Of a stretch of 50,581 nucleotides of DNA, positions 5,430 through 18,475 are shown in pieces; position 1 is the first letter of the stretch, and each line of letters begins with the position of its first letter. Under the pieces are notes generated by a model. That model was not told where the DNA came from, ran no database searches, and saw only the letters and a program-made list of their open reading frames with translations. Source of the DNA: Dactylosporangium sp. AC04546 (GTDB taxonomy: Bacteria > Actinomycetota > Actinomycetes > Mycobacteriales > Micromonosporaceae); assembly GCF_022095675.1 (NCBI RefSeq), contig NZ_JAHYSG010000088.1, positions 1-50,581 on the forward strand. Reading direction: 5' to 3'. The translations under genes were made by a program, and so were the position numbers.

Positions 5430-6980
5430 TCATCGGATGGTGCCGACCAGGCGCTCGTAGGAGCGGCGCAGGATCTGCACGGCGCGGCGGCTGCGGCCGG
5501 AGTAGGCCGGGTCGAGGTCGCGCTCGGCCCAGCCGCCGAGCCGCTCGCGGGCCGCGGCGGCCAGCTCGTCGCGGGACGCGCCGGGCGGCAGGCCGAGCCG
5601 GTCGGCCAGGCTGGTGCCGTGCTCGCCGGTGACCCGCAGCAGGTCGGCCGCGTCCTGCTCGGTGAACGTCAGCTCGCCGTCGTAGTAGTGCCGCAGCACG
5701 TCGAGCTCCTTGAACGCGTGCTCGTTGTGGTCGAGCGACAGCAGCGGGCCGACCGCGTCGAGCAGGGTCATCCGGTCGCGCGGCGGGAGCCGGTCGGTGA
5801 GGCCGTCGCGCAGCTGGTAGACGTGGTCGAGCATGCCGCGCAGCTTGATCAGGTCGGCGCGGTTGCCGAAGTGGTCGACGAGGAGCCGCTTGAACTCGGT
5901 CATGCCGCTGCGCGCGGTCATCTCGGCGCGCAGCGCGGCCGGGTCGGCGACGCCCTCGCGCAGCAGCCCGGTCGCCAGGGCGATGCCGTACTGGCCGAAC
6001 CGGCGCAGCAGCGGCGCCCGGCGCTGCGGTGGCACGGGCACGTCGTCGTACTCGCGGGTGGCGAAGTACGGGCCGCGGCGCAGCCGCTTCTCAAGGGTCT
6101 CGGCGTCCATCGTGGACAGCTCGGCGAGCGCGCCGAACTCGTCGTCGGTGAACGTGGCCGCGGCCGCGCCGACCAGGCTGGCGACCGGCCGCACGTCGTA
6201 GAGCACCCGCCGGGCGCTGGCCGCTGCCATGACCCGCTCGGCGAGGTGCCGGCCCTCGGCCATCGGGTCGGGGTGCTGCGGCCAGGCCAGCTCGACCTTG
6301 GTCAGCGCGGCGATCGTGGTGATCGGCCCGCTGCCGCCGAACCCGGGCCCGACGAAGTCGGCGAGCAGCTCCTCCTCGTTGGCCGCGAGCCCGCGGGCGA
6401 ACACCACGACGAGCGCGTCGGCCTTGCTGGCCTGCGCCTCGGACGCGGCCCGCACCTCGTCGCCGGTGCGGCCGAGGAACCGCAGCGTGTTCTGCGAGTC
6501 GTTGTGGAACACCGAGTCGAGGCCGGGCGTGTCGACCAGGTCGAACGCCTTGAGGTACGGGTTGGGATCGGTGATGACCAGGTAGTCGATGGCCTTGAGC
6601 AGGCGCTGCCGCTCGCGGTCGCCGTCGCGGGCGCGCACGGTCAGCTCGGCCAGCTCGACGGCGTCGCGCCGCTCGGGCCTGCGGCCGTCGCGGAAGTGCA
6701 CGGTCAGCTCGCGGCTGCTGCCGTACCGCAGCCAGTTCACGTTGAACGTGAGCTCCTCGACGCCGGTGGGCGCCAGCTCGCCGCCGAGCATGGCGTTGGC
6801 GAGCGTCGACTTGCCGGAGCTGACCCGCCCGACCAGCGCCACGCGCATCGGCGCGTCGAGCCGCTCGCGGTGCGCGGCGAGGGCTTCCCGGACGGGTCGC
6901 AGGGGTTCGCCGGTACCGAGGGCGGCCCCCGCCGTCGCGAACGCCGCCCGCGCCCGTTCCCGCAGCTCCGAGCCGCTCAT
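5430..6980 (-). CDS. Dynamin-like GTPase (516 residues)
   Basis: A large GTPase of the bacterial dynamin-like family. G1 is 'GRVSSGKST' at residues 51-59, a G2-type Thr lies near 72, G3 is 'DTPG' at 150-153, and the G4-like 'LTKVE' is slightly off the TKxD consensus. The long C-terminal part is helical and shows no clear membrane paddle. Bacterial dynamins remodel or stabilise membranes and often work as pairs. The ATG at 6980 overlaps the stop of the upstream 183-residue gene (6977) by four bases, so the two are translationally coupled. The second dynamin-like gene lies 1.3 kb upstream in the same cluster. Confidence 0.85.
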   Translation of the reverse strand: MSGSELRERARAAFATAGAALGTGEPLRPVREALAAHRERLDAPMRVALVGRVSSGKSTLANAMLGGELAPTGVEELTFNVNWLRYGSSRELTVHFRDGRRPERRDAVELAELTVRARDGDRERQRLLKAIDYLVITDPNPYLKAFDLVDTPGLDSVFHNDSQNTLRFLGRTGDEVRAASEAQASKADALVVVFARGLAANEEELLADFVGPGFGGSGPITTIAALTKVELAWPQHPDPMAEGRHLAERVMAAASARRVLYDVRPVASLVGAAAATFTDDEFGALAELSTMDAETLEKRLRRGPYFATREYDDVPVPPQRRAPLLRRFGQYGIALATGLLREGVADPAALRAEMTARSGMTEFKRLLVDHFGNRADLIKLRGMLDHVYQLRDGLTDRLPPRDRMTLLDAVGPLLSLDHNEHAFKELDVLRHYYDGELTFTEQDAADLLRVTGEHGTSLADRLGLPPGASRDELAAAARERLGGWAERDLDPAYSGRSRRAVQILRRSYERLVGTIR

Positions 6981-7528: not shown

Positions 7529-8210
7529 GTCCGCTCCCCGCGGTCACCAGGTAGTTGCCGGAGTCCTCCCAGGCGTCGAGGAACGCCTCGAGCGCCACCC
7601 GCTCCCCGCCGCCGTCGGGCGTGCCGGGGTCGTTGAGGACGACGACCGGGTGGGCCGGGTCGCTGTAGTCGACCCCGGTGACCTGCACGGCGTGGTCGGC
7701 GCCCTGGCCGGGGATGCCGGGGTAGGCGTCGAGCGGCTCGTCGGGGTCGTGGCCCGGGGTCCAGATCTCGTCGGAGTCGACGCCGACGATCACCTTCTGC
7801 CCGCCGTCGAGGGCCTGCTGGAGGTCCTGGAACGTCGCGCCGTACTCGCGCTGCACCGGCACGCCGAAGTACTCCAGGATGTTGCCGACGTCGGCCATCG
7901 CGGTGCCGCCGCCGGGCTGGTACCAGCCGTGCGCCTCGGCGAGCTCGGTGAGCTGGGCCTCGCTGTGGTCGGCGCCGGTGAGCTCGTCGAGGATGAACTC
8001 CTGGCTGGCGACGGCGCAGGTGTCGGCGCGCTCCTGCATGTGCCAGTGCTCGGCCGCCGCGGCCGGCTCCCCCACGACGGCCGGGTCGTCGTCGTGGGGG
8101 TGGTCGGGCAGCGGCTCGGCGACGGTGTCCTGGTGATGGTCGTCGTCGCCGCCGGTGATGATGTCGATGAGGTCGTGCAGATGCTCGACCAAGTTCTCGA
8201 ACTCGCTCAT
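7521..8210 (-). CDS. C39-like papain-fold cysteine peptidase, cytoplasmic
   Basis: 229 residues. ATG 8210 is chosen because a GGAGG lies five bases upstream and the longer frame adds only an unlikely extension. Residues 1-55 are acidic and His-rich. The rest has a C39-like arrangement: Gln59 and Cys65 ('ERADTCAVASQ'), His173 ('GADHAVQVTG') and Asp194 ('VVLNDPGTP'). All expected catalytic residues are present, so it may be active. No secretion signal or ABC exporter domain exists, so it is not a bacteriocin-export peptidase. Its substrate may be a neighbour in this cluster. It lies between two dynamin-like GTPase genes. Confidence 0.75.
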   Translation of the reverse strand: MSEFENLVEHLHDLIDIITGGDDDHHQDTVAEPLPDHPHDDDPAVVGEPAAAAEHWHMQERADTCAVASQEFILDELTGADHSEAQLTELAEAHGWYQPGGGTAMADVGNILEYFGVPVQREYGATFQDLQQALDGGQKVIVGVDSDEIWTPGHDPDEPLDAYPGIPGQGADHAVQVTGVDYSDPAHPVVVLNDPGTPDGGGERVALEAFLDAWEDSGNYLVTAGSGHA

Positions 8211-8259
8211 GCGACCTCCGCTTCGCTCCGGCCGCACGAGCCCAAAGCTGAGCCCATGA

Positions 8260-8295
8260 TGAGCGGCCTCCTCCGCTTCGCTGCGGAACCGCTCA
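8260..8295. repeat. Inverted repeat across the end of the second dynamin gene
   Basis: TGAGCGG (8260-8266) pairs with CCGCTCA (8289-8295), with an inner CCGC/GCGG pairing. It sits in the gap after the 660-residue GTPase gene and includes its last codons. It could reduce read-through into the C39-like gene or stabilise the upstream mRNA. CCTCCGCTTCGCT occurs twice nearby (from 8214 and from 8270). Confidence 0.4.
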
Positions 8296-10275
8296 TGCGT
8301 CCGCCCAGTCGTCGTCGTGGGCGGCCGGGCGCTGGGCCGGGGCGGGCGCCGGGGCGTCCTTCGCCGGCGTGGCAGCGGTGGCGGTGGCCGCCGCGAGGCG
8401 GTCGACGTCGCGGGCCAGCGCCGTGATCCGGCCCCGGGCCCGCACGATCGGCGTCTTCTCGGCGTTGAGCTCGGCGGTGCGCTGCCGCGCCTTCTCCTGG
8501 GTGGCCTGCCGCGCGTCGGCGAGCCGCGGCAGCAGGTCGCGTACCGTCTCGCGCTCCTGCGCGATGCGGCTGTCGAGCTCGGCGACGACGGACCGGGCGA
8601 ACACCCGCATCGCCTCCTGCACCGCCGACGTGACGTGCCGGCGCTGCTCCTGCTCCAGCAGCCGCAGCTCGCTCTGCAGGCTGCTGCGGCGCGACTGCCG
8701 GTCGGCCTTGCGCTCGTCGACCTTGCCGCTGCGGTAGCCGACCGCGCTGCCGAAGAGGCTGCCGAGGGCGCTGCCGATGACGGTGCCGACGCCCGGCATG
8801 AGGATGCTGCCGAGGAAGCCGCCGATCGCCGCGCCGACGCCGCTGCCCAGGCCGGCGTCGCGCAGCTTGCGCTTCATCGCGTTGGGCCGGTTCTCGCCGT
8901 GCAGGTCGCCGTGGACGTCCAGGTGCGGCACCGGCGGGTCGGGCAGCCGCCCGAGCTGCGGGTGGCCCAGGTCGAGGCCGTTGCGGGCGGTGAAGTCGCG
9001 CAGCACGCCGGCGGCGGCCCGGCCGGCCTGCTCGTTGAGCTCGCCGATGACCTGGGCGGCGTCGGCGGTGAGCTGGCCGACGAGCCGGTCCGGGTTGTAC
9101 AGGTAGGTGTCGTCGCGCAGGTACTCGGTGTTGAACACCTGCCAGACCTTGTCGAGCCGCTGCTGGCCCTGGTTGGCCAGCTGCCGGCCGATGCCGCCCA
9201 GCTCGTCGGCGAGGTCGCGCCGCCAGCCGGCCGAGCCCTGCTGGAGCTCGGTGAGCTTGGCCTGGCGCTCCTCGGCCTGCTTGGTGAGCTCGCCGACCTT
9301 CTGCTTGGTCTCGTCGGCGAGCGCCTCGATCGCCTCGTCGAGCGGCGTCTGCAGGCCATGGGCGCCGCGCTCCAGCTCGCCGAGCGCGTCGCCGAGCAGC
9401 CGCTTGGCCCGCCACCGGCCGAGCGAGGTCCACAGCCGGGTCTCGAACTCGACGAAGTTCGACAGCTCCAGGTCCTCGTCCTCGCCGTCGACGAGGTAGT
9501 CGCGCTTGGCGTGCGCGGACACGGGGGTGATGACCACCCGCTCCAGCGGCCAGCCGAGCGTGTCGGCGATCTTCCGGCGGGCGTTGGCGAGCATCGTGGT
9601 GAAGTCGGCGACGCCGTCGGTCTTGGTGAGCACGAACTGCAGCGCGTCGGCCGAGTCGCCGGCCGCGACGGCGTCGGCGGCGCGGCCGAGGAACCGCAGC
9701 TCGCTCTCCAGCAGAGGCTGGGTCGCGTCGGCGACGAACACGATCGCGTCGGCGCTGGGCAGGAACGCCATGGTGATCGCGGTGTGCTCCTGGTGGACGC
9801 TGCCGACGCCGGGCGTGTCGACGAGCGTGAGGCCCGAGGCGAGCTTCGGGTTCGGCGTGGTCACGCTGAGCAGCCGGGCCCGGCGGGTGTTGTGCGGGTT
9901 GCCGCTCTCGGTGACGTACCTGGCGATCTCGTCGCGGCCGATCGACAGCGTCTCGGTCGCGCCCTTCGCGTCGATCAGGACGTCGATCTCCTCCTTCGGC
10001 CCGTACGAGACCGTCGTCACCGCGTTGGTGGCGATCTCGCCGGCCTCCGGGAAGAGCAGCGGCGCCCGCCACTCGTCGAGCAGCGCGTTGAGCAGGCTGG
10101 ACTTGCCCCGTTTGAACTCGCCGCAGACGACCACGGTCAGCCGCCCGTCGGCCAGGCGCTGGTGGGCGGCGTCGAGCCGGCCGACGGCCGTCGTCGCGCC
10201 GCGCCGCCGGGCCGTGTCCGTCAGCTCGCCGAAGAGGGCGAGCACGTCATCACGTACCGCGTCGAAATCCCGCAT
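8293..10275 (-). CDS. Dynamin-like GTPase with glycine-rich hydrophobic paddle (660 residues)
   Basis: G1 is 'GEFKRGKSS' at residues 52-60, G3 'DTPGVGS' at 153-159 and G4 'TKTD' at 217-220. A long coiled-coil stalk follows (about 300-370). A glycine-rich hydrophobic stretch at about 468-508 ('GVGAAIGGFLGSILMPG', 'GTVIGSALGSLFGSAVG') resembles the membrane-inserting paddle of bacterial dynamins such as BDLP and LeoA. A second coiled coil and an Ala/Pro tail end the protein. It probably assembles on the inner membrane. It is the first of two dynamin-like genes in the cluster. The second lacks a clear paddle, so the two may form a hetero-oligomer. Confidence 0.88.
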   Translation of the reverse strand: MRDFDAVRDDVLALFGELTDTARRRGATTAVGRLDAAHQRLADGRLTVVVCGEFKRGKSSLLNALLDEWRAPLLFPEAGEIATNAVTTVSYGPKEEIDVLIDAKGATETLSIGRDEIARYVTESGNPHNTRRARLLSVTTPNPKLASGLTLVDTPGVGSVHQEHTAITMAFLPSADAIVFVADATQPLLESELRFLGRAADAVAAGDSADALQFVLTKTDGVADFTTMLANARRKIADTLGWPLERVVITPVSAHAKRDYLVDGEDEDLELSNFVEFETRLWTSLGRWRAKRLLGDALGELERGAHGLQTPLDEAIEALADETKQKVGELTKQAEERQAKLTELQQGSAGWRRDLADELGGIGRQLANQGQQRLDKVWQVFNTEYLRDDTYLYNPDRLVGQLTADAAQVIGELNEQAGRAAAGVLRDFTARNGLDLGHPQLGRLPDPPVPHLDVHGDLHGENRPNAMKRKLRDAGLGSGVGAAIGGFLGSILMPGVGTVIGSALGSLFGSAVGYRSGKVDERKADRQSRRSSLQSELRLLEQEQRRHVTSAVQEAMRVFARSVVAELDSRIAQERETVRDLLPRLADARQATQEKARQRTAELNAEKTPIVRARGRITALARDVDRLAAATATAATPAKDAPAPAPAQRPAAHDDDWADA

Positions 10276-10338
10276 CCCCGAGACCCTTCCCTGTGGTGGT
10301 GCGGTTCAGATCGGCCCGGCCCCGCGGATTGTTCCCGG

Positions 10339-10626
10339 TCACCAGAGATCCTCGTCGTCGTGCTCGGTGCCGTCGTAGGCGCCGTCCGATCCGTCCTCGA
10401 CATCGGGCACGTCCTCGTACCCGGGGTCGTCGAAGCCGTCGGCGGCCACGTCGACGATGTCCTCGCCGGGGTCGAACGCCACGTCGAGCAGGTGCGCCCA
10501 GTCCTCCTCGGGCAGCTGCGGCACCGGCGCCCCGATGCCGTCGCGCAGCGCCGCGAGGTCCTGCGGGCTCACCGCCGTGTCGGGGTCGAGGTCGGGGAAC
10601 ACCGACATGTCCAGCCACTCGGTCAT
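10339..10626 (-). CDS. Small acidic protein coupled to the ECF sigma gene
   Basis: 95 residues, strongly acidic, with Asp/Glu runs near the C-terminus ('DDPGYEDVPDVEDG', 'EHDDEDLW'). Its ATG at 10626 overlaps the stop of the sigma-factor gene in an ATGA. An anti-sigma gene usually occupies this position, but it lacks Cys, the HxxxCxxC zinc motif and any membrane span. It might be an unusual sigma antagonist or a structural partner of the GTPases. There is no family assignment. Confidence 0.65.
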   Translation of the reverse strand: MTEWLDMSVFPDLDPDTAVSPQDLAALRDGIGAPVPQLPEEDWAHLLDVAFDPGEDIVDVAADGFDDPGYEDVPDVEDGSDGAYDGTEHDDEDLW

Positions 10627-11159
10627 GCGTCGGCCCCCCGCAGCAGTGCCACGAGCGCCTGGCGGGCCCGGGAGATGCGGCTCTTCACCGTGTTGAGCGG
10701 GATCTGGAGGATCTCGGCGATCTCCTCGTACGAGTGGTCGGCGCACTCGCGCAGCACGATCGCCGCCCGGTACTGCGGGGGCAGCCGGCGCAGCGCCGCC
10801 TGCACGGCGAGCCGGTCGGCGATCGCGTCGGCGTGCCCGGGCGCGCCGCTGGTCGGCGGGGTCAGCTCGAACGGGTCGACGGGCTGCGGCCGGTCGGCGC
10901 CGCGCTGCGCCTCGGCGACGGCGGCGTTCACCGCGATGCGGTACAGCCAGGTCGAGAACCGGGCGTCGCCGCGGAACTTCGGCAGCCCGCGCCATGCCCG
11001 GATGAGGGTCTCCTGGAGCGCGTCGGCGGCCGCCTGCGGCTCGCCGGTGATGCGCAGGCACACGGCGTGGATCATCGAGCGGTGCCGGGTGACGAGCTCG
11101 GCGAACGCCGCCTGGTCGCCGGCCGCGCCACGCGTGACCAGGGTCGTCTCGTCTTCCAC
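10623..11159 (-). CDS. ECF-type RNA polymerase sigma factor
   Basis: 178 residues with both expected regions. Sigma-2 includes 'DALQETLIRAWRGLPKFRG' and 'FSTWLYRIAVNAAV'. Sigma-4 includes 'LPPQYRAAIVLRECADHSY', 'EEIAEILQIPLNTVKSRISR'. The start is GTG 11159 with AGGTGA just upstream. It leads a minus-strand cluster with a small acidic protein, two dynamin-like GTPases and a C39-like protein, and probably drives expression of that cluster. Confidence 0.93.
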   Translation of the reverse strand: MEDETTLVTRGAAGDQAAFAELVTRHRSMIHAVCLRITGEPQAAADALQETLIRAWRGLPKFRGDARFSTWLYRIAVNAAVAEAQRGADRPQPVDPFELTPPTSGAPGHADAIADRLAVQAALRRLPPQYRAAIVLRECADHSYEEIAEILQIPLNTVKSRISRARQALVALLRGADA

Positions 11160-11242
11160 CCGTCACCTGACCGTGCGTGTGCCCGCCGAATGCTCGTGAT
11201 CACGGTAGCCGCCGCCCACCTGGAACACGGTCGCACGAGCGG

Positions 11243-11443
11243 TTACTTCGGCTCGACCGTCTCGCCGGTTACGGTGTCGTAGTACTCGTTGTACGAGGTC
11301 GACCAGGCGACCGGGTTGCCGTCCTCCGTCTGGCCGTCGACGTCGAGCGCCGTCCCCAGCAGCTGGTCCGGATCGTCCTCGGCGACCGGTTCGCTGTGGT
11401 CCTCGTGCACGTCGGCGAAGCCGTCGTCGTCCCAGTCCTGCAT
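11243..11443 (-). CDS. Small acidic protein, 66 residues
   Basis: It starts at ATG 11443 with AAGGAG seven bases upstream. Highly acidic, with 'WDDDGFADVHEDHSEP' and a C-terminal 'STSYNEYYDTVTGETVEP'. There is no Cys and no membrane span. The composition resembles the 95-residue protein at 10339-10626. It lies upstream of the sigma gene on the same strand, about 80 bp away, and is divergent from the XRE regulator. Function unknown. Confidence 0.6.
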   Translation of the reverse strand: MQDWDDDGFADVHEDHSEPVAEDDPDQLLGTALDVDGQTEDGNPVAWSTSYNEYYDTVTGETVEPK

Positions 11444-11482
11444 GTCAAGCTCCTTCCCCGTCGGGTCACTTCCGGTCTGATC

Positions 11483-11518
11483 GCAGCCGGCTCGGAAAAA
11501 GTTCCCGGCTGCTACCGT
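11483..11518 (+). promoter_or_regulatory. Operator-like inverted repeat and -10 box before the XRE regulator
   Basis: GCAGCCGG (11483-11490) pairs perfectly with CCGGCTGC (11505-11512), with 14 bases between. TACCGT (11513-11518) follows directly and lies 7 bases before the ATG at 11526, suggesting a leaderless, possibly autoregulated promoter. Confidence 0.5.
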
Positions 11519-11525
11519 CGGATCC

Positions 11526-12416
11526 ATGCCCGGTGACCGGCTCTCCCCGTCCGGTGCCCGGCGGCGGCTCCGCACGGCGCTGCGGGAGTCCCGCGAGGTC
11601 GCCAGCATGACGCAGCGGGAGGTCGCGGAGCGGCTCCAATGGTCGCTCTCCAAGCTCATGCGCATGGAGAGCGGCGCGGTGTCGATCGCGCCGCGGGACG
11701 TGCAGCTCCTGTGCGGCCTGTACGAGCTCGGTGCGGCCGTGACGGAGCGTCTGGCCGGACACGCGACGGCCGGGCAGGAGAAGTCCTGGTGGTTCGAGTA
11801 CCGCGAACACCTGACGCAGTCCAGCGCCGCGTTGATCGATCTGGAGTCGGATGCCGTCAGGATCCGTCAGTTCGCGACGCTGACGGTGCCCGGCCAGCTG
11901 CAGACCGCTCGATACGCCGAGGCGGTGCTGCGCTTCGCGGGCGAGCTCGTCACCGGAGCCGCCGACGAGCAACGCATCGCCACCGGCGTCGTGGTCCGGC
12001 AGCGACGCCGCAGCACGTACGAGGGCCCGGACGCACCCGAGCTGTCGGTCGTGCTCGACGAGGCGGTGCTCTACCGGCTGACGGGGTCCGCCGCCGTCAT
12101 GGCCGAGCAGCTCCTCCTGGTCGCCGAGTTCGCGCGGCGGCCGCGGATCGACATCCGCGTGCTGCCGCTGGAGGCCGGGGTGCACCTGGCGAACGGTGAC
12201 TTCGTCCTGGCCGACCTCGACGACGGCACCGCGGCCCTCTACCTGGAGGCCCTCACCGAGGACACCGCGGTGGAGAGCCCGTCACAGGTCGCAGCGTACT
12301 CCCGAGCGTTCGACGCGCTGCGGCGGCGGGCGCTCGATCCGACCCGGACGAACCACCTCCTGCACCGGGTCGCCGCCCAATACGCCGCCGGCGAGCACGT
12401 CCGGCCGTGGCTGTGA
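11526..12416 (+). CDS. XRE-family regulator with DUF5753 domain
   Basis: 296 residues. The N-terminal HTH (about 14-70) includes 'MTQREVAERLQWSLSKLMRM'. The rest matches the DUF5753 sensor typical of actinobacterial XRE regulators, with 'EYREHLTQSSAALIDLES', 'TLTVPGQLQTARYAEAVL' and the C-terminal 'YSRAFDALRRRALDP'. Such proteins often pair with a downstream DUF397 gene, and none is present here. Its 3' end overlaps the convergent NACHT NTPase gene by 135 bp. It may control that unit, which is inference from position only. Confidence 0.9.
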   Translation: MPGDRLSPSGARRRLRTALRESREVASMTQREVAERLQWSLSKLMRMESGAVSIAPRDVQLLCGLYELGAAVTERLAGHATAGQEKSWWFEYREHLTQSSAALIDLESDAVRIRQFATLTVPGQLQTARYAEAVLRFAGELVTGAADEQRIATGVVVRQRRRSTYEGPDAPELSVVLDEAVLYRLTGSAAVMAEQLLLVAEFARRPRIDIRVLPLEAGVHLANGDFVLADLDDGTAALYLEALTEDTAVESPSQVAAYSRAFDALRRRALDPTRTNHLLHRVAAQYAAGEHVRPWL

Positions 12417-15080
12417 GAAGCCGATCAACCGGTCGTCGTCCATGTCGTCGTCGGCGGCGTCGGGCTCCGCGTCCTGCCGGTCCGGGCTCAGCAGCACGTG
12501 CCACTGGCCACTGTCGGGGAAGCTGTCGGGGCGGCCGAGCAACAGGCCCTTCGCGACGCTGCGCCACGGCGCCGGTTCCAGCCCGGCCCGCCACAGCCGC
12601 ACCGACGAGCGCCACCAGCGAGCGCTGTCCTGACCGTCGGGCGTGAGCCGGTCGACCGGGCACGCGCGGCCCAGCGCCGCCGCGAGAGTGACGAGGTTGA
12701 CGCTGTACGCCGCCACCGCCCGCACGACGTCGGCCCCGGCCGGCTCGTAACGGGTGTACGCGCCGGCGGCTCGTTCCCGTGCCCGTCCGAGTAGCTCACA
12801 GACGACGCCCTCGAGTCGCTTGCGCCGTTCGGGCGGCAGGCTGTCGGCGATCTCCTCGACGAAGTCGACGATCTGACGGCGCTGCAGCAGTGGTTGGTAG
12901 GACAGCAGCGCGCGGAGCATGCTGTCGTCGGCCGGTTCGTGTGCCGACGGGTCGGAGGCGTACAGGTCGGCGGCGGCGAGGTAGCCGTCGACGAGCCTCA
13001 GTGACCGCTCGGCGATCAGGAACTCGCCGAAGGTGGCGTGCAGGAACTCGTAGGTGCGCCGTCCGTTGCCGCTGTTCTCGTCGGCCTCGGCGACGTGGAC
13101 GAAGAAGAAGTCGGCGACCGTCCGCTGGGCGAGGCTCAGCGGCGCGTTGAGCCCGGTCGCCGGGCGGGCCTCGGCGCCGCGGCCGAGGGCCTGGAGGTCG
13201 CGCTCCAGGTCGGCCTCGCGGGTGTGCTGCAGGCCCCGGTTGAACATCGCGAACGCTGCGACGCTGAGCCGCCAGCGCTGCTCCGCCAGCAGGCGGGGCA
13301 CGACCGCCGGATCGGGTGGACGCTCCGGCTTGTCGATCACCTGCCGGCGGATGAACGTGTCGAGGAGCCGCTCGTAGAGCGCCGCGGTGGACAGGCTCCG
13401 GTCCCGGCGCGACAGACCGCCGTGCCCGGCGGCGTAGATGGCGAGCATGGTCAGCAGCAGCGGCTGGCCGGCGAGGGCCCGGTGCGCGCCGACCGCGGCC
13501 GGGGTGAGCTGGCGGAATCCGGGGCGGCCCGCGTTGGCGGCGTTCCAGTTGCCGATCCACTCCGCGATCTGCTCGTCGCCGAAGTCCTCCAGCTTGACCA
13601 GCGTCGAACCGTCGGGGATGCGCGCCCGGTCGGCGACGAGGGTCCGGGAGGTGACGACGACCGCGACCGCGCGGCCCAGGTCGTGCTCCTCTTCCTGGAA
13701 GCGCTGTACCTCGGCCAGGTACCCGGACTGCGTCGCACCGGTCGCCTGGACCAGCTCGTCGAACCCGTCGAGCACGACGACCCGGGTGAGGTTCGCACTC
13801 TCGTCGGCGAGCCGGCCCCACGACACCGTGTCGTGCAGGATGTCCCGCAACGCGCTCTCGACCTGGCTGAGCACCCGGTCCTCCGGGTTCACCCGGCGCA
13901 GCTGCACCGGCACCACCATGAACCCCGCCGGTGGCAGCCGGGCCGCGAGGACCTCGCTCACCAGCGACTTGCCCGCACCGGGGTGGCCGAGCAGGAGGAG
14001 CGGGCGCAGCGCGGCGACGGGATGCGCGAGGTGTCCGGCCAGGAACTCGTCGAGGCCGGTCCGTACCGGCAGCTCCTCCCACCAGGTCTCCGACGACGCG
14101 ACGACGCCGGGGCCGGCGACCGCCGTCCGGAACGACGGCGTCACGAACCCCTCGGCGACCGACGGGAACGACAGGCCGTCCGGCACCATGGACGAGCGCA
14201 GCAGCGGCTTGCGCAGGACTGCACCGGCCGCGGCGACGAGCTTCGCGCGGTACGAGGTCCGCTCGGGCGTGGCGTCGGGAACGGTGAGGGCGAGCAGGTC
14301 GTAGAGCTTGCCGAGAGTCTCCGAATGCGCGTTCAGCGCCGAGGTCACCCGCGCGCCGACCGCGCCGACGTCGAACTGGGTCGCGGCGTGCGCGCCGAGC
14401 GCCGCCCAGATGAAGAACTCCGGCGCGTCGGTGGCGAGGCGCAGGTAGCGGTCGCGGTACAGCCGCTCCCAGCGGTCCAGGACGTCGGTCTGCAGCCGGG
14501 CCGAGTCGACCCGGAGGCGCTGCCACGCGGCCAGGCCCTCGAAGAACGCCACCGCACCGCCGATCAGCTCGCGGACCCTCGGCGCCAGCGCGTCGCGAAG
14601 GTTCTCCTCGAAGCCCCGGCTCGGTGCCGGCAGACTCAGCTCGGTGCGGTTGAGCTGGTCGATCCAGCTCACCTGGGTGATGACCGTGCCCCGGGATGTG
14701 GCCAGCCGCAGCTTCTCCTCGTCGGTCACGGCGAGCGTGCGGAACCGGGCCCCCGCGTGCTCCTCGATCGCGTCGAACAGTGCCGAGACGACGAGCGTCG
14801 TGTGGGCGGCGGCGATGAGGTCGTGCCGGTCGCGGCCGGTGCTGCCGCGCAGCCGGTCGGCGATACGCCCGGCCAGCCGGCTCAGGATGCCCTTCAGCTC
14901 CTGTTTGGCGTCGACCAGGGCGAGCGCGCCGGGGAACACGACAGCGCCGAGCAGGATACCGGCGCCGGCGAGCCGGTCCAGCGCCTCGACGAACGGCCGA
15001 TCCTGCCGTCCCAGCAGCGCCGTGGCACCGGCGTAGGTCAATGGAGTGACGCCCACGCGACCGACCGTAGCGTACGTCAC
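12282..15080 (-). CDS. NACHT/STAND NTPase
   Basis: 932 residues. The start is GTG 15080, whose GTGA overlaps the stop of the Hsp70-like gene (15077-15079). The longer open frame upstream is a shadow of that gene. The N-terminal ~330 residues are helical with a hydrophobic stretch ('AGAGILLGAVVFPGALAL'), resembling NACHT-associated N-terminal helical regions. The Walker A 'GHPGAGKS' is at 365-372. The NACHT-type Walker B 'VVVLDGFDEL' has its Asp at about 438. A sensor region includes 'VVVTSRT'. The part after the winged-helix region has no recognisable repeats. STAND NTPases act as switches that oligomerise on ligand sensing, often in defence or cell-death signalling. The last ~45 residues are encoded antisense to the XRE gene and have a different composition, so the original C-terminus may have been lost or altered. 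Confidence 0.87.
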   Translation of the reverse strand: MTYATVGRVGVTPLTYAGATALLGRQDRPFVEALDRLAGAGILLGAVVFPGALALVDAKQELKGILSRLAGRIADRLRGSTGRDRHDLIAAAHTTLVVSALFDAIEEHAGARFRTLAVTDEEKLRLATSRGTVITQVSWIDQLNRTELSLPAPSRGFEENLRDALAPRVRELIGGAVAFFEGLAAWQRLRVDSARLQTDVLDRWERLYRDRYLRLATDAPEFFIWAALGAHAATQFDVGAVGARVTSALNAHSETLGKLYDLLALTVPDATPERTSYRAKLVAAAGAVLRKPLLRSSMVPDGLSFPSVAEGFVTPSFRTAVAGPGVVASSETWWEELPVRTGLDEFLAGHLAHPVAALRPLLLLGHPGAGKSLVSEVLAARLPPAGFMVVPVQLRRVNPEDRVLSQVESALRDILHDTVSWGRLADESANLTRVVVLDGFDELVQATGATQSGYLAEVQRFQEEEHDLGRAVAVVVTSRTLVADRARIPDGSTLVKLEDFGDEQIAEWIGNWNAANAGRPGFRQLTPAAVGAHRALAGQPLLLTMLAIYAAGHGGLSRRDRSLSTAALYERLLDTFIRRQVIDKPERPPDPAVVPRLLAEQRWRLSVAAFAMFNRGLQHTREADLERDLQALGRGAEARPATGLNAPLSLAQRTVADFFFVHVAEADENSGNGRRTYEFLHATFGEFLIAERSLRLVDGYLAAADLYASDPSAHEPADDSMLRALLSYQPLLQRRQIVDFVEEIADSLPPERRKRLEGVVCELLGRARERAAGAYTRYEPAGADVVRAVAAYSVNLVTLAAALGRACPVDRLTPDGQDSARWWRSSVRLWRAGLEPAPWRSVAKGLLLGRPDSFPDSGQWHVLLSPDRQDAEPDAADDDMDDDRLIGFSQPRPDVLAGGVLGGDPVQEVVRPGRIERPPPQRVERSGVRCDL

Positions 15081-16936
15081 TCCGAAGTCGTCACCAGCCA
15101 GTCGCCGTCGGCCACCGGGCCGCCCGGGTCCGCGTGGTGGGCGAGCACCGTCCCGGCCCGGTCCGGGGCGGTGAGCCGCCACAGCGTGCCGTCGGCCGCG
15201 CGCACCAGGGCGAGCGGGGCGCCCGCGGCGTACCGCCCGTCCACCTCGACCAGCCAGCGCACCAGCCGCCCGCCGCCGGTCGGGACCGCCCAGCTCAGCG
15301 GCGTGCGGGCCGGCCGGGGCCGGTCGGCCGCGACCGTGCGCACCGTCCCGGCGCGGGTGGCGGCGCCCCGCACGACGGCGAGGTCGGGGTCCTCGGGCCG
15401 GCGCAGCGGCCGGGCGAGGCGGGCCGTGAGCCGGTCGGCGACGGCCGGCATCCGCGTCGTGCCGCCCACCAGCAGTACCGCGGTCAGGTCCGCCGCACCC
15501 ACGCCGCACCGATCGAGCAGGGCCTCGCAGCACTCGACGGTCCGGTCGAGCAGCGGCCGGACCAGCCGCTCGAACGCCACGCGGTCCAGCACCGCCGGCG
15601 GCGCGGCCGGTGAGGGGTAGTCCTCGACCCGGTCGGCCTCGCTGAGCTGGTGCTTGAGCCCGCGCACGAAGTCGGCGAGGTGGAGCCGGGCCCGCAGGGC
15701 GGCGTCGCCGGTGAGCCCGGGCGGCACGACGGCCGCGGTGAACTCCTCGCCGCCCGTGTCGCGCAGGTGGGCGGCGAGCAGGGCGTCGACGTCCCGGCCG
15801 CCGCAGTCGTCGAGGGCGGCGTGGCCGAGCACCTCGTGCCCGTCGCCGCCGGCGTGCCGGATGAGCGCGGCGTCGAAGGTGCCGCCGCCGAAGTCGTAGA
15901 CGAGCACCAGGTCGCCGGCCCCGAACGCGCTGCCGGTGAGCGGCCCGAGGCCCGCCGCGACCGGCTCGGCCAGCAGCTCCACCTCGGCGAAGCCGGCCGC
16001 CTCGCCGGCCGCGACCAGGTCCGCGGCGCGCGGGTCGCCGGGCCCGTGGCTGGCCGGGACGGTGAGCAGCAGCCGCCGCACGGGCCGCTCGGCCTGCTGC
16101 TCGGCGAGCGCGCCGAACTGCCGCAGCAGCGCCGCGACGAGCTCCCGCGGCGCGTACTCGCGGTCACCGAGCGGCACGGGCGCGGCCTGCCCGAGGTCGC
16201 GCTTGAACTCCGTCCGGTACGCGGTCGGCACCGCGCGCTTCCGCGCATTGGCCGCGCTGCCGACCACGAGCCCGTCCCCGTCCCGGCACACCGCGGACGG
16301 CCACGAGTACAGCCCGCTCGCCGGCTCCTTGATCAGCCGCACCTCCCCACCGATCACGACCGCGGCGGACGAGGCCGAGGTCCCGAAGTCCACGACGAGC
16401 ACCGCCTCGGGGCCCGGCGCGGCCTCGGCGGGCGGGGTCGGCAGCGCCGGGCGGGTGACGGTCGCGATCGCCGGACCGCGCTTCCCTCGTGTCACCTCGT
16501 TCACCTGCTGAACGACCGCGGCCAGCGGCAGGCCGATTCCCACCAGGATTCGCGCGCCGTCGCATCCAGGGTTGCGCGCGATGCCGAGCAGCACCTGCTC
16601 CCCACCCGGGACGGCCGCCGGCACCTTTGCCTTCGCCCTCCATGAGATCGTGTTGGTATCGCCGAGGAACGCGCCAAGGGCCAAGCCCACGGTGCCGCCG
16701 ATGATGGCGACCACCCCGCCGTCCCGCAGTTCCCAGTCCGCGCCGGCCACCGCCGCCCGCAGCAGGGTCAGGTCGGCGCCCATGAGCTCCAGCGTGGTCC
16801 AGGCCGCCCCGGTGCTCAGCCTGGACAGGCCCAACAGCAGGTGCGCGGTGCTGACCTGGTCGTGGCCGAGCTGGTCGGCCTCCTCCCGCGCAAGTTTGAG
16901 CACCCGATCGGTGACCATCCCGAAGCCCTGCGTCAT
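15077..16936 (-). CDS. Clp N-domain fused to Hsp70/actin-type ATPase
   Basis: 619 residues from ATG 16936. Residues 1-70 match a Clp_N (ClpR) repeat: 'VTDRVLKLAREEADQLGHD', 'STAHLLLGLSR'. A hydrophobic segment (74-91, 'GVVAIIGGTVGLALGAFL') follows, then a degenerate second Clp_N repeat (to about 150, 'GEQVLLGIARNPGCDGARIL'). After a Pro/Ala linker comes an Hsp70/actin ATPase: phosphate-1 'VVDFGTSASS' (Asp183), phosphate-2 'VYDFGGGTFD' (about 346-355) and adenosine motif 'VLLVGGTTRMP' (487-497). The usual Hsp70 substrate-binding domain is missing; only about 75 residues follow. It is translationally coupled to the downstream NACHT NTPase. This suggests a chaperone-like sensor feeding a STAND switch. 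An alternative in-frame ATG lies at 16957. Confidence 0.82.
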   Translation of the reverse strand: MTQGFGMVTDRVLKLAREEADQLGHDQVSTAHLLLGLSRLSTGAAWTTLELMGADLTLLRAAVAGADWELRDGGVVAIIGGTVGLALGAFLGDTNTISWRAKAKVPAAVPGGEQVLLGIARNPGCDGARILVGIGLPLAAVVQQVNEVTRGKRGPAIATVTRPALPTPPAEAAPGPEAVLVVDFGTSASSAAVVIGGEVRLIKEPASGLYSWPSAVCRDGDGLVVGSAANARKRAVPTAYRTEFKRDLGQAAPVPLGDREYAPRELVAALLRQFGALAEQQAERPVRRLLLTVPASHGPGDPRAADLVAAGEAAGFAEVELLAEPVAAGLGPLTGSAFGAGDLVLVYDFGGGTFDAALIRHAGGDGHEVLGHAALDDCGGRDVDALLAAHLRDTGGEEFTAAVVPPGLTGDAALRARLHLADFVRGLKHQLSEADRVEDYPSPAAPPAVLDRVAFERLVRPLLDRTVECCEALLDRCGVGAADLTAVLLVGGTTRMPAVADRLTARLARPLRRPEDPDLAVVRGAATRAGTVRTVAADRPRPARTPLSWAVPTGGGRLVRWLVEVDGRYAAGAPLALVRAADGTLWRLTAPDRAGTVLAHHADPGGPVADGDWLVTTSE

Positions 16937-17069
16937 AGCCGGCAGTCTCCCGATCATGGGCGCGGAACGCCATCGGGAACACCGGTGATTTCGCCGATCC
17001 CGGATGCTCCCTGTGCTGCACACACTGACGGACGTCGAAGTAAGACCCCGAGCCAGAGGGAGTGCAGCC

Positions 17070-17927
17070 TTGCAACGACAACACCCCGCCACCCGGTTCC
17101 TCGTCCGTGCCGCCATGGTGCTCGCACTCATGGGGGCCGGGATCACGGCCGCCGCCGCCCCGGCGGTCGCGGACGAGATCGGCCAGGCACCCACCGCCAG
17201 CAACATCACCGGCAACGGCAGTTTCGCCACCACGTCGGAGAGCATCTCCAGCCTGGTCAGCGGCTTCGGGGGCGGCCGCGTGTACTACCCGACCACCGCC
17301 GGCAAGTACCCGGTGATCGCGATCTCCCCCGGCTTCACCGCCACCTGGTCCAGCCTGAGCTGGATCGGGCCGCGGCTGTCGTCGTGGGGCTTCGTCGTGG
17401 TCGGCATCGAGACGAACAGCATCTACGACCAGCCCGCCAGCCGCGGCAGCCAACTGCTCGCCGCACTGAACTGGGCCGTCAACTCGTCGTCGACCGCGGT
17501 GCGCTCGCGGGCCGACGGCAGCCGCCGCGGCGTCGCCGGCCACTCGATGGGCGGCGGCGGCACCCTGGAGGCGCTCGCCGCGGACACCACCGGGCTGGTC
17601 AAGGCCGGTGTGCCGATCGCGCCGTGGAACAGCGACAAGACGTGGAACAACGTGAGCGAGCCGGTCATCATCGTCGGCGGCCAGTCCGACACGGTCGCCC
17701 CGGTCTCGTCCCACTCGATCCCGTTCTACAACACCCTCGCGGGTCCGAAGTCGTACGTCGAGCTGACCGGGGCGAGCCACTTCTTCCCGCAGTCGACGAA
17801 CGCCACCCTGTCCCGTGCCCTGGTGGCCTGGTTCAAGCGCTGGCTGAACCAGGACTCCCGCTTCACCCCGTACACCTGCGGCTTCTCCGGCGTCGCGGTG
17901 TCGGACTTCCGCAGCAACGCCTGCTAG
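17070..17927 (+). CDS. Secreted polyester hydrolase (cutinase / type I PET-hydrolase family)
   Basis: 285 residues from TTG 17070, which has AGAGGGAG upstream. The signal peptide ends at about residue 34 (AVA/DE). The mature part follows the actinobacterial cutinase/LCC pattern: 'VSGFGGGRVYYP', 'ISPGFTATWSSLSWIG' and the nucleophile motif 'GHSMGGGG' (Ser159). Asp207 lies in 'GGQSDTVAPV' and His237 in 'GASHFFP'. The oxyanion residues are Phe89 and Met160, and Trp186 lies in 'APWNSDKTW'. Cys270 and Cys285 form the single expected C-terminal disulfide. His before the catalytic Ser and one disulfide mark it as type I, not IsPETase-like. It should hydrolyse cutin-like or synthetic polyesters outside the cell; PET activity is not shown by sequence alone. 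Confidence 0.88.
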   Translation: MQRQHPATRFLVRAAMVLALMGAGITAAAAPAVADEIGQAPTASNITGNGSFATTSESISSLVSGFGGGRVYYPTTAGKYPVIAISPGFTATWSSLSWIGPRLSSWGFVVVGIETNSIYDQPASRGSQLLAALNWAVNSSSTAVRSRADGSRRGVAGHSMGGGGTLEALAADTTGLVKAGVPIAPWNSDKTWNNVSEPVIIVGGQSDTVAPVSSHSIPFYNTLAGPKSYVELTGASHFFPQSTNATLSRALVAWFKRWLNQDSRFTPYTCGFSGVAVSDFRSNAC

Positions 17928-18412
17928 AAGCGAGTCACATCGAGCAGATGGTGCTCGCCCTCGTGAACCGTGTGCCGGCCGAGCCACAGCAGTGTGCGCT
18001 CGGCCGGCTCCGGCCACGGGTACCGCCCGGTCCGCGCAAGCTCGGCGGTACTCAACACCTCGAACGAGGCCGCGAGCGCCGAGGCCGCGACCGACAGCGC
18101 GGCCAGCACCAGCGAAGGGTCCTGGTCGTTGTAGGCGTCGGCGACGACCCGCTCCTCCCGCCCCATCGGCGCGAACTCCGGCCGGTCCTCCCGCAGCCCC
18201 AGCATCAGCCGCTCCCGCTGCACCACGAACACGTCCCGCACGTGGCAGGTGTACTCCAGCGGCGACCAGACGTCCGGGGCCGGACGCCTGCGGGCCTCCG
18301 GCACCGCGGCGAGCGCCGCCGCGAACCGCGCACCGAAACCCCGCAGCCGCTGCGGCACCGCCCCGGCGGCGACGCCGGCATAGTCGAAGCCGCACTCCTC
18401 GCAGCGATCCAT
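17924..18412 (-). CDS. DinB-like (DfsB) four-helix protein
   Basis: 162 residues from ATG 18412 ('MDRCEECGFDY'); the longer frame adds an unconvincing basic extension. 'WSPLEYTCHVRDVFVVQRER' and the C-terminal 'LLWLGRHTVHEGEHHLLD' carry the spaced His residues that bind metal in the DinB superfamily. Some members are thiol-dependent transferases or isomerases (mycothiol S-transferases), which could apply in an actinobacterium. The N-terminal CxxC is notable. It is convergent with the polyester hydrolase, and both stops use the same CTAG. Confidence 0.78.
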   Translation of the reverse strand: MDRCEECGFDYAGVAAGAVPQRLRGFGARFAAALAAVPEARRRPAPDVWSPLEYTCHVRDVFVVQRERLMLGLREDRPEFAPMGREERVVADAYNDQDPSLVLAALSVAASALAASFEVLSTAELARTGRYPWPEPAERTLLWLGRHTVHEGEHHLLDVTRF

Positions 18413-18475
18413 CCCGCCACGGTACGGCCGGGTCCGCCGTCCCCGATCGGTCCAATCGGCGACGAGCGGACTCCG

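What the first reader, a model, noticed from the sequence alone, without database searches (positions are those of the whole stretch)
12282..16936. Clp N-domain-Hsp70/actin fusion translationally coupled to a NACHT/STAND NTPase
Seen: a 619-residue protein joins a ClpR-type N-terminal region to an Hsp70/actin ATPase without the usual substrate-binding domain. Its stop overlaps the GTG start of a 932-residue NACHT protein (GTGA at 15077-15080). Known: Clp N-domains recognise unfolded or tagged proteins, Hsp70 ATPases sense protein state, and NACHT NTPases switch on by oligomerising. Inference: a sensor for damaged or foreign proteins that triggers a STAND switch, possibly in phage defence or programmed death. 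A hydrophobic segment between the two Clp repeats may hold the sensor at the membrane.
Basis: partly seen in the sequence, partly recalled or inferred. Interest (0 to 1): 0.82.

Follow-up and report, generated by a model that had tools for sequence, protein, structure and literature searches.

The report
NLR-like switch cassette with Hsp70 fusion
A soil actinobacterium carries, in one removable 5.5-kb block, an immune-receptor-like switch gene, a DNA-binding regulator and an odd chaperone-like fusion; switch and regulator recur together in relatives, but the fusion stands beside them only here among the genomes that could be read.

Summary
The two genes are real, on the minus strand. P0002 (15080 or 15056 to 12282) is an NNH7 STAND protein with an NLRC4/NOD2/NLRP3-like fold. 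GTGA is in the sequence, but relatives start at the GTG 24 bp further in, so coupling is doubtful.
About 46 Hsp70 genes in this genome make one chance neighbour unremarkable (about 0.10). The conserved partner is another gene, a convergent HTH_31-DUF5753 regulator (8 of 8 orthologous loci plus the window).
Best reading: NLR-like switch/regulator cassette with a lineage-specific add-on; a dedicated proteostasis sensor remains possible (0.25).

The parts
11508..16973 (.). variable block (indel) holding exactly three genes, which span 99% of it; absent from sister genome G005, whose matching flanks lie 37 bp apart (edges blurred over some tens of bases)
11526..12416 (+). HTH_31-DUF5753 (XRE-type) regulator, 296 aa, convergent with the NACHT gene and overlapping its 3' end; conserved partner of this NACHT clade
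12282..15080 (-). NNH7 NACHT-type STAND protein P0002 (932 aa from GTG 15080; the start at GTG 15056 is better supported by relatives)
14394..15044 (-). NNH7 domain (residues 13-229)
14913..14969 (-). hydrophobic segment in NNH7 (residues 38-56, KD19 2.15)
13965..13988 (-). Walker A GHPGAGKS (residues 365-372)
   Evidence: motif name from established knowledge
13752..13781 (-). Walker B VVVLDGFDEL (residues 434-443)
   Evidence: motif name from established knowledge
15077..16936 (-). Clp_N - Hsp70 NBD - barrel-sandwich fusion P0001 (619 aa, ATG)
16748..16891 (-). Clp_N repeat 1 (residues 16-63)
16484..16603 (-). degenerate Clp_N repeat 2 (about residues 112-151)
   Evidence: (second stretch), alignment with P0005, helices
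16664..16720 (-). hydrophobic, glycine-rich segment (residues 73-91)
15332..16405 (-). Hsp70 nucleotide-binding domain (residues 178-535)
15083..15307 (-). barrel-sandwich hybrid (biotinyl/lipoyl-like) domain without the carrier lysine (residues 544-618)

Best explanation
The block 11508-16973 is an accessory, immune-type cassette. Its conserved core is an NLR-like NACHT-type switch (P0002) with a convergent XRE-type HTH_31-DUF5753 regulator. In this Dactylosporangium lineage a third gene, a Clp_N-Hsp70-barrel-sandwich fusion (P0001), stands upstream of the switch in the same orientation and was gained or lost with it. Shown: domains, intact nucleotide-binding motifs, the NLR-like fold, the conserved HTH partner, and the three-gene indel. 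Inferred from the STAND class: P0002 rests in a closed, nucleotide-bound state, is triggered, oligomerises, and brings its NNH7 domains together; the hydrophobic NNH7 segment suggests an output at the membrane (cell death or arrest). Inferred: the HTH protein keeps expression low. P0001 is taken here as an add-on and not an obligate part: one of a large actinobacterial family of SBD-less Hsp70-barrel-sandwich proteins with exchangeable modules, here a fast-evolving Clp_N module.
For: NNH7 7e-58; Foldseek best hits NAIP/NLRC4, NOD2 and NLRP3, best E 2.8e-9 (TM-scores mostly under 0.35, so fold class only); core Walker A and B residues (G365, P367-K371, D438, G439, D441, E442) invariant in 58 rows. 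Convergent HTH_31-DUF5753 gene at the 3' end in 8 of 8 orthologous loci L194-L201 plus the window, against 10 such genes among 1163 called in the 80 wider loci, 4 of the 10 being those of clade members. Empty site in G005 at 91-94% flank identity. No Hsp70-core gene in 80, 10 and 4 loci. Hsp70-BSH relatives without Clp_N and with other modules; 0 of 12 such loci with an NNH7-type NACHT.
Against: All three genes share one indel, and P0001 and P0002 are 20 bp apart or overlapping, which favours a working link. The direction of the indel (insertion here or loss in G005) is unresolved. The defence role is inferred from the protein class; no neighbouring defence genes were shown, and the PADLOC scan of P0001 and P0002 gave only a weak mad8 match (0.041) for P0002. 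Pfam's NACHT model does not match P0002. L202 and L203, more distant NACHTs (44-47% identity), lack the HTH partner, as do the 4 own-genome NNH7 loci, so it marks this clade only.
Confidence: 0.5

Rival explanations
1. Sensor-switch pair: the Clp_N end of P0001 binds misfolded, tagged or foreign protein, the Hsp70 ATPase changes state, and this triggers the NACHT-type switch next door; a built-in version of chaperone guarding.
For: One indel carries both genes. The N part of P0001 and P0004 is 51.5% identical (86 of 167) while Hsp70-BSH is 94.6% (417 of 441), with another Hsp70-BSH ortholog pair of the same two strains at 84.4%: fast sensor, frozen switch. NBD positions K245, E324, D348, T353, D355 are invariant in 56 rows. 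Precedent: E. coli bNACHT25 needs DnaJ, and mutations breaking the DnaJ-DnaK interaction also break defence (PMC12169576, abstract and Discussion read).
Against: No recurrence. No protein named from the P0004 strain among the 120 of 272 P0002 relatives listed. The C15 fusion copy has metabolic neighbours and no STAND gene among 9 ORFs scanned. Adjacency alone has a chance of about 0.10.
Confidence: 0.25
2. Chaperone-type restraint: P0001 holds P0002 in its inactive state, much as Hsp90 stabilises plant and animal NLRs, and its loss or titration frees the switch.
For: Catalytic positions of the NBD intact, same orientation and close spacing; Hsp90-NLR precedent as told in the Discussion of PMC12169576.
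Against: SBD absent; orthologous NACHTs do without such a gene.
Confidence: 0.1
3. Not defence: a developmental or stress-regulatory cassette. DUF5753 HTH proteins are common actinobacterial regulators (recalled, from no call), and the switch could serve differentiation.
For: NCBIfam matches the regulator to the Sco1979 family below its cut-off (147.3 of 350 bits).
Against: Variable presence between close genomes and restriction to 18 of 354 family genomes at E <= 1e-150 fit an accessory function better.
Confidence: 0.15

Closest known systems
Bacterial NLR-related NACHT proteins (bNACHT25; PMC12169576, abstract and Discussion read)
   Same: NLR-like NTPase switch; a functional tie of a bacterial NACHT protein to DnaJ/DnaK is known for bNACHT25
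   Different: NNH7 N-terminus and actinobacterial clade; here the chaperone-like protein is encoded next door and lacks an SBD, whereas DnaJ is a general host factor in the known case
NTP-dependent conflict systems of Kaur et al. 2020 (PMC7159879; passages read)
   Same: Hsp70 lacking the peptide-binding domain in GAP1-N2 GTPase systems; ClpN repeats fused to vWA in FtsH ternary systems
   Different: the passages shown (12 of 40 places, 9 of 9) do not join ClpN to Hsp70, or Hsp70 to a NACHT; no MoxR or vWA family appeared in the Pfam matches of the 10 window neighbours scanned
LypABC with repressor CdxB (PMC13236601; abstract and four passages read)
   Same: NLR-like system, toxic when overproduced, held down by an XRE-family repressor: a model for the conserved HTH-NACHT pair
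   Different: CdxB is 132 aa with an HTH and a putative dimerisation domain; the LypA and LypC peptidases have no counterpart among the three genes here
Actinobacterial Hsp70-barrel-sandwich family (sources name them 'Hsp70 family protein')
   Same: P0001 residues 178-618
   Different: 117 of the 120 listed proteins have no Clp_N match; some carry WD40, membrane or coiled-coil-like modules, and some stand as tandem Hsp70 pairs

Membership tests
NACHT-type STAND (NLR-like) | Walker A and Walker B (LDG[FL]DE) motifs | tested here: met
   core residues invariant in 58 rows
NACHT-type STAND (NLR-like) | NLR NTPase fold | tested here: met
   model pLDDT 84.5; Foldseek NLRC4, NOD2, NLRP3, best E 2.8e-9
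NACHT-type STAND (NLR-like) | match to Pfam NACHT model PF05729 | tested here: not met
   no match; its place is absent from the 25 own-genome matches. Several relatives carry PF05729 in their precomputed list (for example P0127-P0130), so I keep 'NACHT-type' and rest it on motifs and fold
NACHT-type STAND (NLR-like) | C-terminal sensor repeats | tested here: inconclusive
   helical region after the NTPase, no LRR, WD40 or TPR family in Pfam
NNH7 NACHTs | N-terminal NNH7 domain | tested here: met
   7e-58, 196.9 bits against cut-off 27
Antiphage bNACHT | protection against phage | not testable with these tools
   needs plating assays
Hsp70 chaperones (DnaK) | intact NBD | tested here: met
   (2.1e-37), invariant positions (their catalytic naming is from established knowledge)
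Hsp70 chaperones (DnaK) | substrate-binding domain | tested here: not met
   C-terminal domain is not SBD-beta (hhalign prob 0.1) and matches biotinyl/lipoyl domains; prok_dnaK 124.6 of 822.55 bits
Clp_N | Clp_N repeat over the curated cut-off | tested here: met
   42.3 bits against 20.7
Biotin/lipoyl carrier proteins | modifiable lysine in the hairpin | tested here: not met
   Gly in 55 of 56 rows at residue 583; no Lys among the residues shown for columns 580-587 (all 56 rows accounted for except 3 at 581)
Kaur et al. GAP1-N2 Hsp70 systems | DO-GTPase and GAP1 genes alongside | tested here: inconclusive
   not named among Pfam matches of the 10 neighbouring genes scanned, but no GAP1-specific model was run; two dynamin-family GTPases are nearby
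Clp_N-Hsp70/NACHT as one system | recurrent neighbourhood in other genomes | tested here: not met
   neighbours of P0004 and P0005 unreadable

The most novel reading that the evidence does not exclude
A bacterial NLR with its own dedicated proteostasis sensor: a Clp_N-Hsp70-barrel-sandwich protein with a frozen ATPase body and a fast-evolving Clp_N recognition end, packed with an NNH7 NACHT-type switch and a repressor in a 5.5-kb cassette; a hard-wired counterpart of the DnaJ/DnaK guarding used by bNACHT25.
Probability: 0.25. Interest if true: 0.8.

Novelty: new variant of a known kind. Interest (0 to 1): 0.45.

Why it matters
If the fusion does gate the switch, it would give a compact, genetically tractable case in which an NLR reads the protein-folding state through a private Hsp70, and the chaperone-guard idea raised for bNACHT25 could be tested directly. 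Even if not, two results are usable: an NLR-like clade with a conserved convergent HTH_31-DUF5753 partner, and an actinobacterial Hsp70-barrel-sandwich family with exchangeable modules.

Tried and rejected
Hsp70 C-terminus as a shortened SBD-beta (suggested by a shared TPLS motif): rejected by profile comparison (the SBD profile held only two sequences). Recurrent Hsp70-NNH7 coupling: not found. STAND neighbours of the Hsp70-BSH family: no NNH7-type NACHT in 12 loci; other STAND types were not modelled there. A Clp_N gene near an NNH7 NACHT: 1 of 80 loci (L071, other strand, about 1.4 kb away, without Hsp70), not pursued. Terminal repeats or target duplications at the indel edges: longest exact direct repeat 8 bp within the edges examined, no inverted match of 8 or more. 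Promoter/terminator scan of 10500-17300: 0 promoter-like sites, and 1 terminator-like site at 17058-17046 on the minus strand, against 0.8 expected. Glycine zipper GxxxGxxxGxxxG in P0001/P0004: also in about 10% of shuffled sequences (191 and 215 of 2000), so not used. Empty-site test for the HTH-NACHT pair in Actinoplanes relatives: too divergent, inconclusive. Search for the P0243 ortholog in the P0004 strain: not among the 56 found, but the partners of L194-L201 were not recognisable there either, so the negative is weak. Literature: the listings (titles and starts of abstracts) showed no paper on a Clp_N-Hsp70 fusion or on NNH7 function.

Limits: genes in relatives were called by a simple GC-position script, which missed the focal gene in 3 of 80 loci (L026, L031, L038) and the C15 remnant; the six-frame repeat finds a NACHT frame in all 80 loci and leaves the Hsp70 count at 0. 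Some of the 80 loci are cut short by contig ends. The 12 Hsp70-BSH loci were picked by me from the 50 matches, partly because they showed pairs, so 10 of 12 tandem arrangements is not a rate. The 97 NACHT genes hold three duplicated genomes (L016/L199, L017/L195, L021/L201, judged from equal contig lengths); of the 14 with an HTH neighbour three are such duplicates, and the other 11 are the 9 of the clade plus L037 and L040. In L200 and L201 the HTH gene is doubled, and in L201 the immediate neighbour is a 201-aa piece. The HTH model was trained on these partners. For the count of about 46 HSP70 genes I merged pieces of one gene and dropped one weak match from the 50 matches.
Full report
What is there. 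Both genes lie on the minus strand. P0001 (16936-15077, 619 aa) has Clp_N at 16-63 and an HSP70 match at 257-534; TIGR02350 covers residues 179-557 against DnaK 2-398, far below its cut-off. When the first 165 residues are scanned alone, two Clp_N stretches pass, so the second repeat is degenerate but present. P0002 (15080-12282, 932 aa) has an NNH7 domain at 13-229 and, over the P-loop region, AAA_5 just over its cut-off plus weaker matches to general NTPase families. Pfam's NACHT model does not match it; 'NACHT-type' rests on NNH7, the LDGFDE Walker B, the fold, and relatives that do match PF05729 or bear the name. AlphaFold models have mean pLDDT 84.5 each. In P0001 residues 42-54, 67-110 and 153-172 fall below 50; the NBD and a C-terminal all-beta domain are confident. 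Foldseek puts P0001 with DnaK and P0002 with NAIP/NLRC4, NOD2 and NLRP3.

The missed domain. Residues 544-618 align to biotin/lipoyl domains of the same genome with hhalign probability 97.0 (E 1.2e-10, one comparison) and to DnaK SBD-beta (two sequences) with 0.1. At the place of the carrier lysine stands glycine in 55 of 56 rows. So this is a barrel-sandwich domain that cannot be a lipoyl or biotin carrier in the usual way. K245, E324, D348, T353 and D355 are invariant in the same 56 rows, which by analogy with DnaK (established knowledge) means an ATPase-competent NBD.

The overlap. GTGA is at 15080-15077. In the alignment of 20 relatives most proteins begin a few residues before PLTY; in the window that is the GTG of residue 9 at 15056. 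With that start the genes are 20 bp apart. Translational coupling is therefore unproven.

Is the pair recurrent? No, as far as could be read. A scan of genome contigs with the NACHT alignment gave 80 loci with up to 8 kb of flank: none holds an Hsp70-core gene (and six-frame, where all 80 show a NACHT frame). Ten nearer loci, L194-L203, hold none, nor do four other NNH7 loci of the window's genome (L141-L144). From the other side, P0005 searched in 354 family genomes gave 50 matches at E <= 1e-70 in 32 genomes; only the window's own covers the Clp_N part, and the other 49 begin at residue 144 or later (at most 3 candidates scored per genome). The Clp_N half of P0001 has no close match in 300 family genomes beyond its own: own 342 bits, next 39 bits. 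Among the 120 listed of 372 relatives of P0001, only P0001, P0004 and P0005 carry Clp_N. A decayed relative of P0005, its ATPase core internally shortened, lies at C15 in the same genome; 9 ORFs scanned around it are metabolic (oxidoreductase, AMP-binding, ATP-grasp), a globin, another HSP70 gene, or without a family, and none is STAND. No protein listed (120 of 272) is named from the P0004 strain. The genome has about 46 HSP70 genes, so at least one within 3 kb of five NNH7 genes is expected with a chance of about 0.10.

The conserved partner. Downstream of the NACHT gene and convergent with it lies an HTH_31-DUF5753 gene, 11526-12416(+). The same arrangement is present in all 8 orthologous loci, L194-L201 (55-59% NACHT identity), and not in the two more distant ones, L202 and L203. 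Such genes are 10 of 1163 called in the 80 wider loci, 4 of them those of clade members, so this is far from chance. In Caulobacter the NLR-like LypABC is toxic when overproduced and is held down by the XRE-family repressor CdxB (PMC13236601, abstract and passages), which suggests the same role here by analogy.

One indel. In the same-genus genome G005 the window stretches 8290-11507 and 16974-18460 adjoin, at 91-92% identity, with 37 bp between; the outer flanks match at 93-94%. The 5,466-bp block between them runs from 18 bp before the HTH start codon to 37 bp before the P0001 start codon and holds exactly the three genes; the edges are blurred over some tens of bases. No repeats mark them. 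Insertion and loss cannot be told apart.

Sensor-like evolution. P0001 and P0004 are 94.6% identical over Hsp70-BSH (417 of 441) but 51.5% over the N-terminal part (86 of 167), with a sharp step near residue 170. Another Hsp70-BSH ortholog pair of the two strains, P0013/P0015, is 84.4% identical (529 of 627). In the decayed lineage the N part is 83.8% (134 of 160). This fits a recognition module under change, or relaxed constraint; DNA of P0004 was not available for a dN/dS test.

How it most likely works. Shown: the domain order, intact nucleotide sites, the conserved HTH partner and the shared indel. Inferred from the STAND class: P0002 is a latent switch that oligomerises and acts through NNH7, whose hydrophobic segment (KD19 2.15 at 38-56; at least 1.6 within the first 120 aa in 85 of 116 relatives, against 46 of 116 in the part after residue 250) hints at a membrane output. 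Inferred: the HTH protein limits expression. Open: whether P0001 reports protein damage to P0002. The bNACHT25 work, where DnaJ is needed and mutations breaking the DnaJ-DnaK interaction lose defence (PMC12169576, abstract and Discussion), makes the sensor idea credible but does not test it here.

Known or new. Kaur et al. (PMC7159879, passages) describe Hsp70 without the peptide-binding domain in GAP1-N2 systems and ClpN repeats in FtsH systems; the passages shown do not describe ClpN with Hsp70, or Hsp70 with a NACHT. I rate it a new variant of a known kind: an NLR-like NACHT-type switch with its regulator, plus a lineage-specific fusion.

Noticed in passing
whole genome (G000): About 46 HSP70-family genes in one 13-Mb genome (50 matches), most matched over part of the NBD and not the SBD.
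   Followed up: partly
L241-L250: Hsp70-barrel-sandwich genes stand as tandem pairs or triplets in Micromonosporaceae (10 of 12 loci looked at, chosen partly for this), suggesting an unexplored two-Hsp70 system.
   Followed up: partly
L126 8534-9703 (own genome C15; start inferred from the MFERF residue of the printed frame 8534-9958): Decayed second Clp_N-Hsp70 fusion with a shortened ATPase core; in G005 the matching site keeps both ends but lacks the body.
   Followed up: partly
window 5430-6980 and 8293-10275 (-): Two dynamin-family genes beside the block, one with a glycine-zipper match; the stretch is shared with G005.
   Followed up: no
window about 8198-8306: A roughly 100-bp dispersed repeat with dozens of copies at 80-93% identity in this genus, in places tandem at about 86-bp steps.
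   Followed up: no
window 17004-17927 (+): PETase-like hydrolase (PF12740, 306 bits) next to the block; its DNA also matches in other Dactylosporangium genomes at 84-87%.
   Followed up: no
L035, L036, L061, L075, L095: Two NNH7-NACHT genes within one locus on the same strand.
   Followed up: no
L071 5461-6258 (-): A Clp_N frame about 1.4 kb from an NNH7 NACHT gene, on the other strand and without Hsp70.
   Followed up: no
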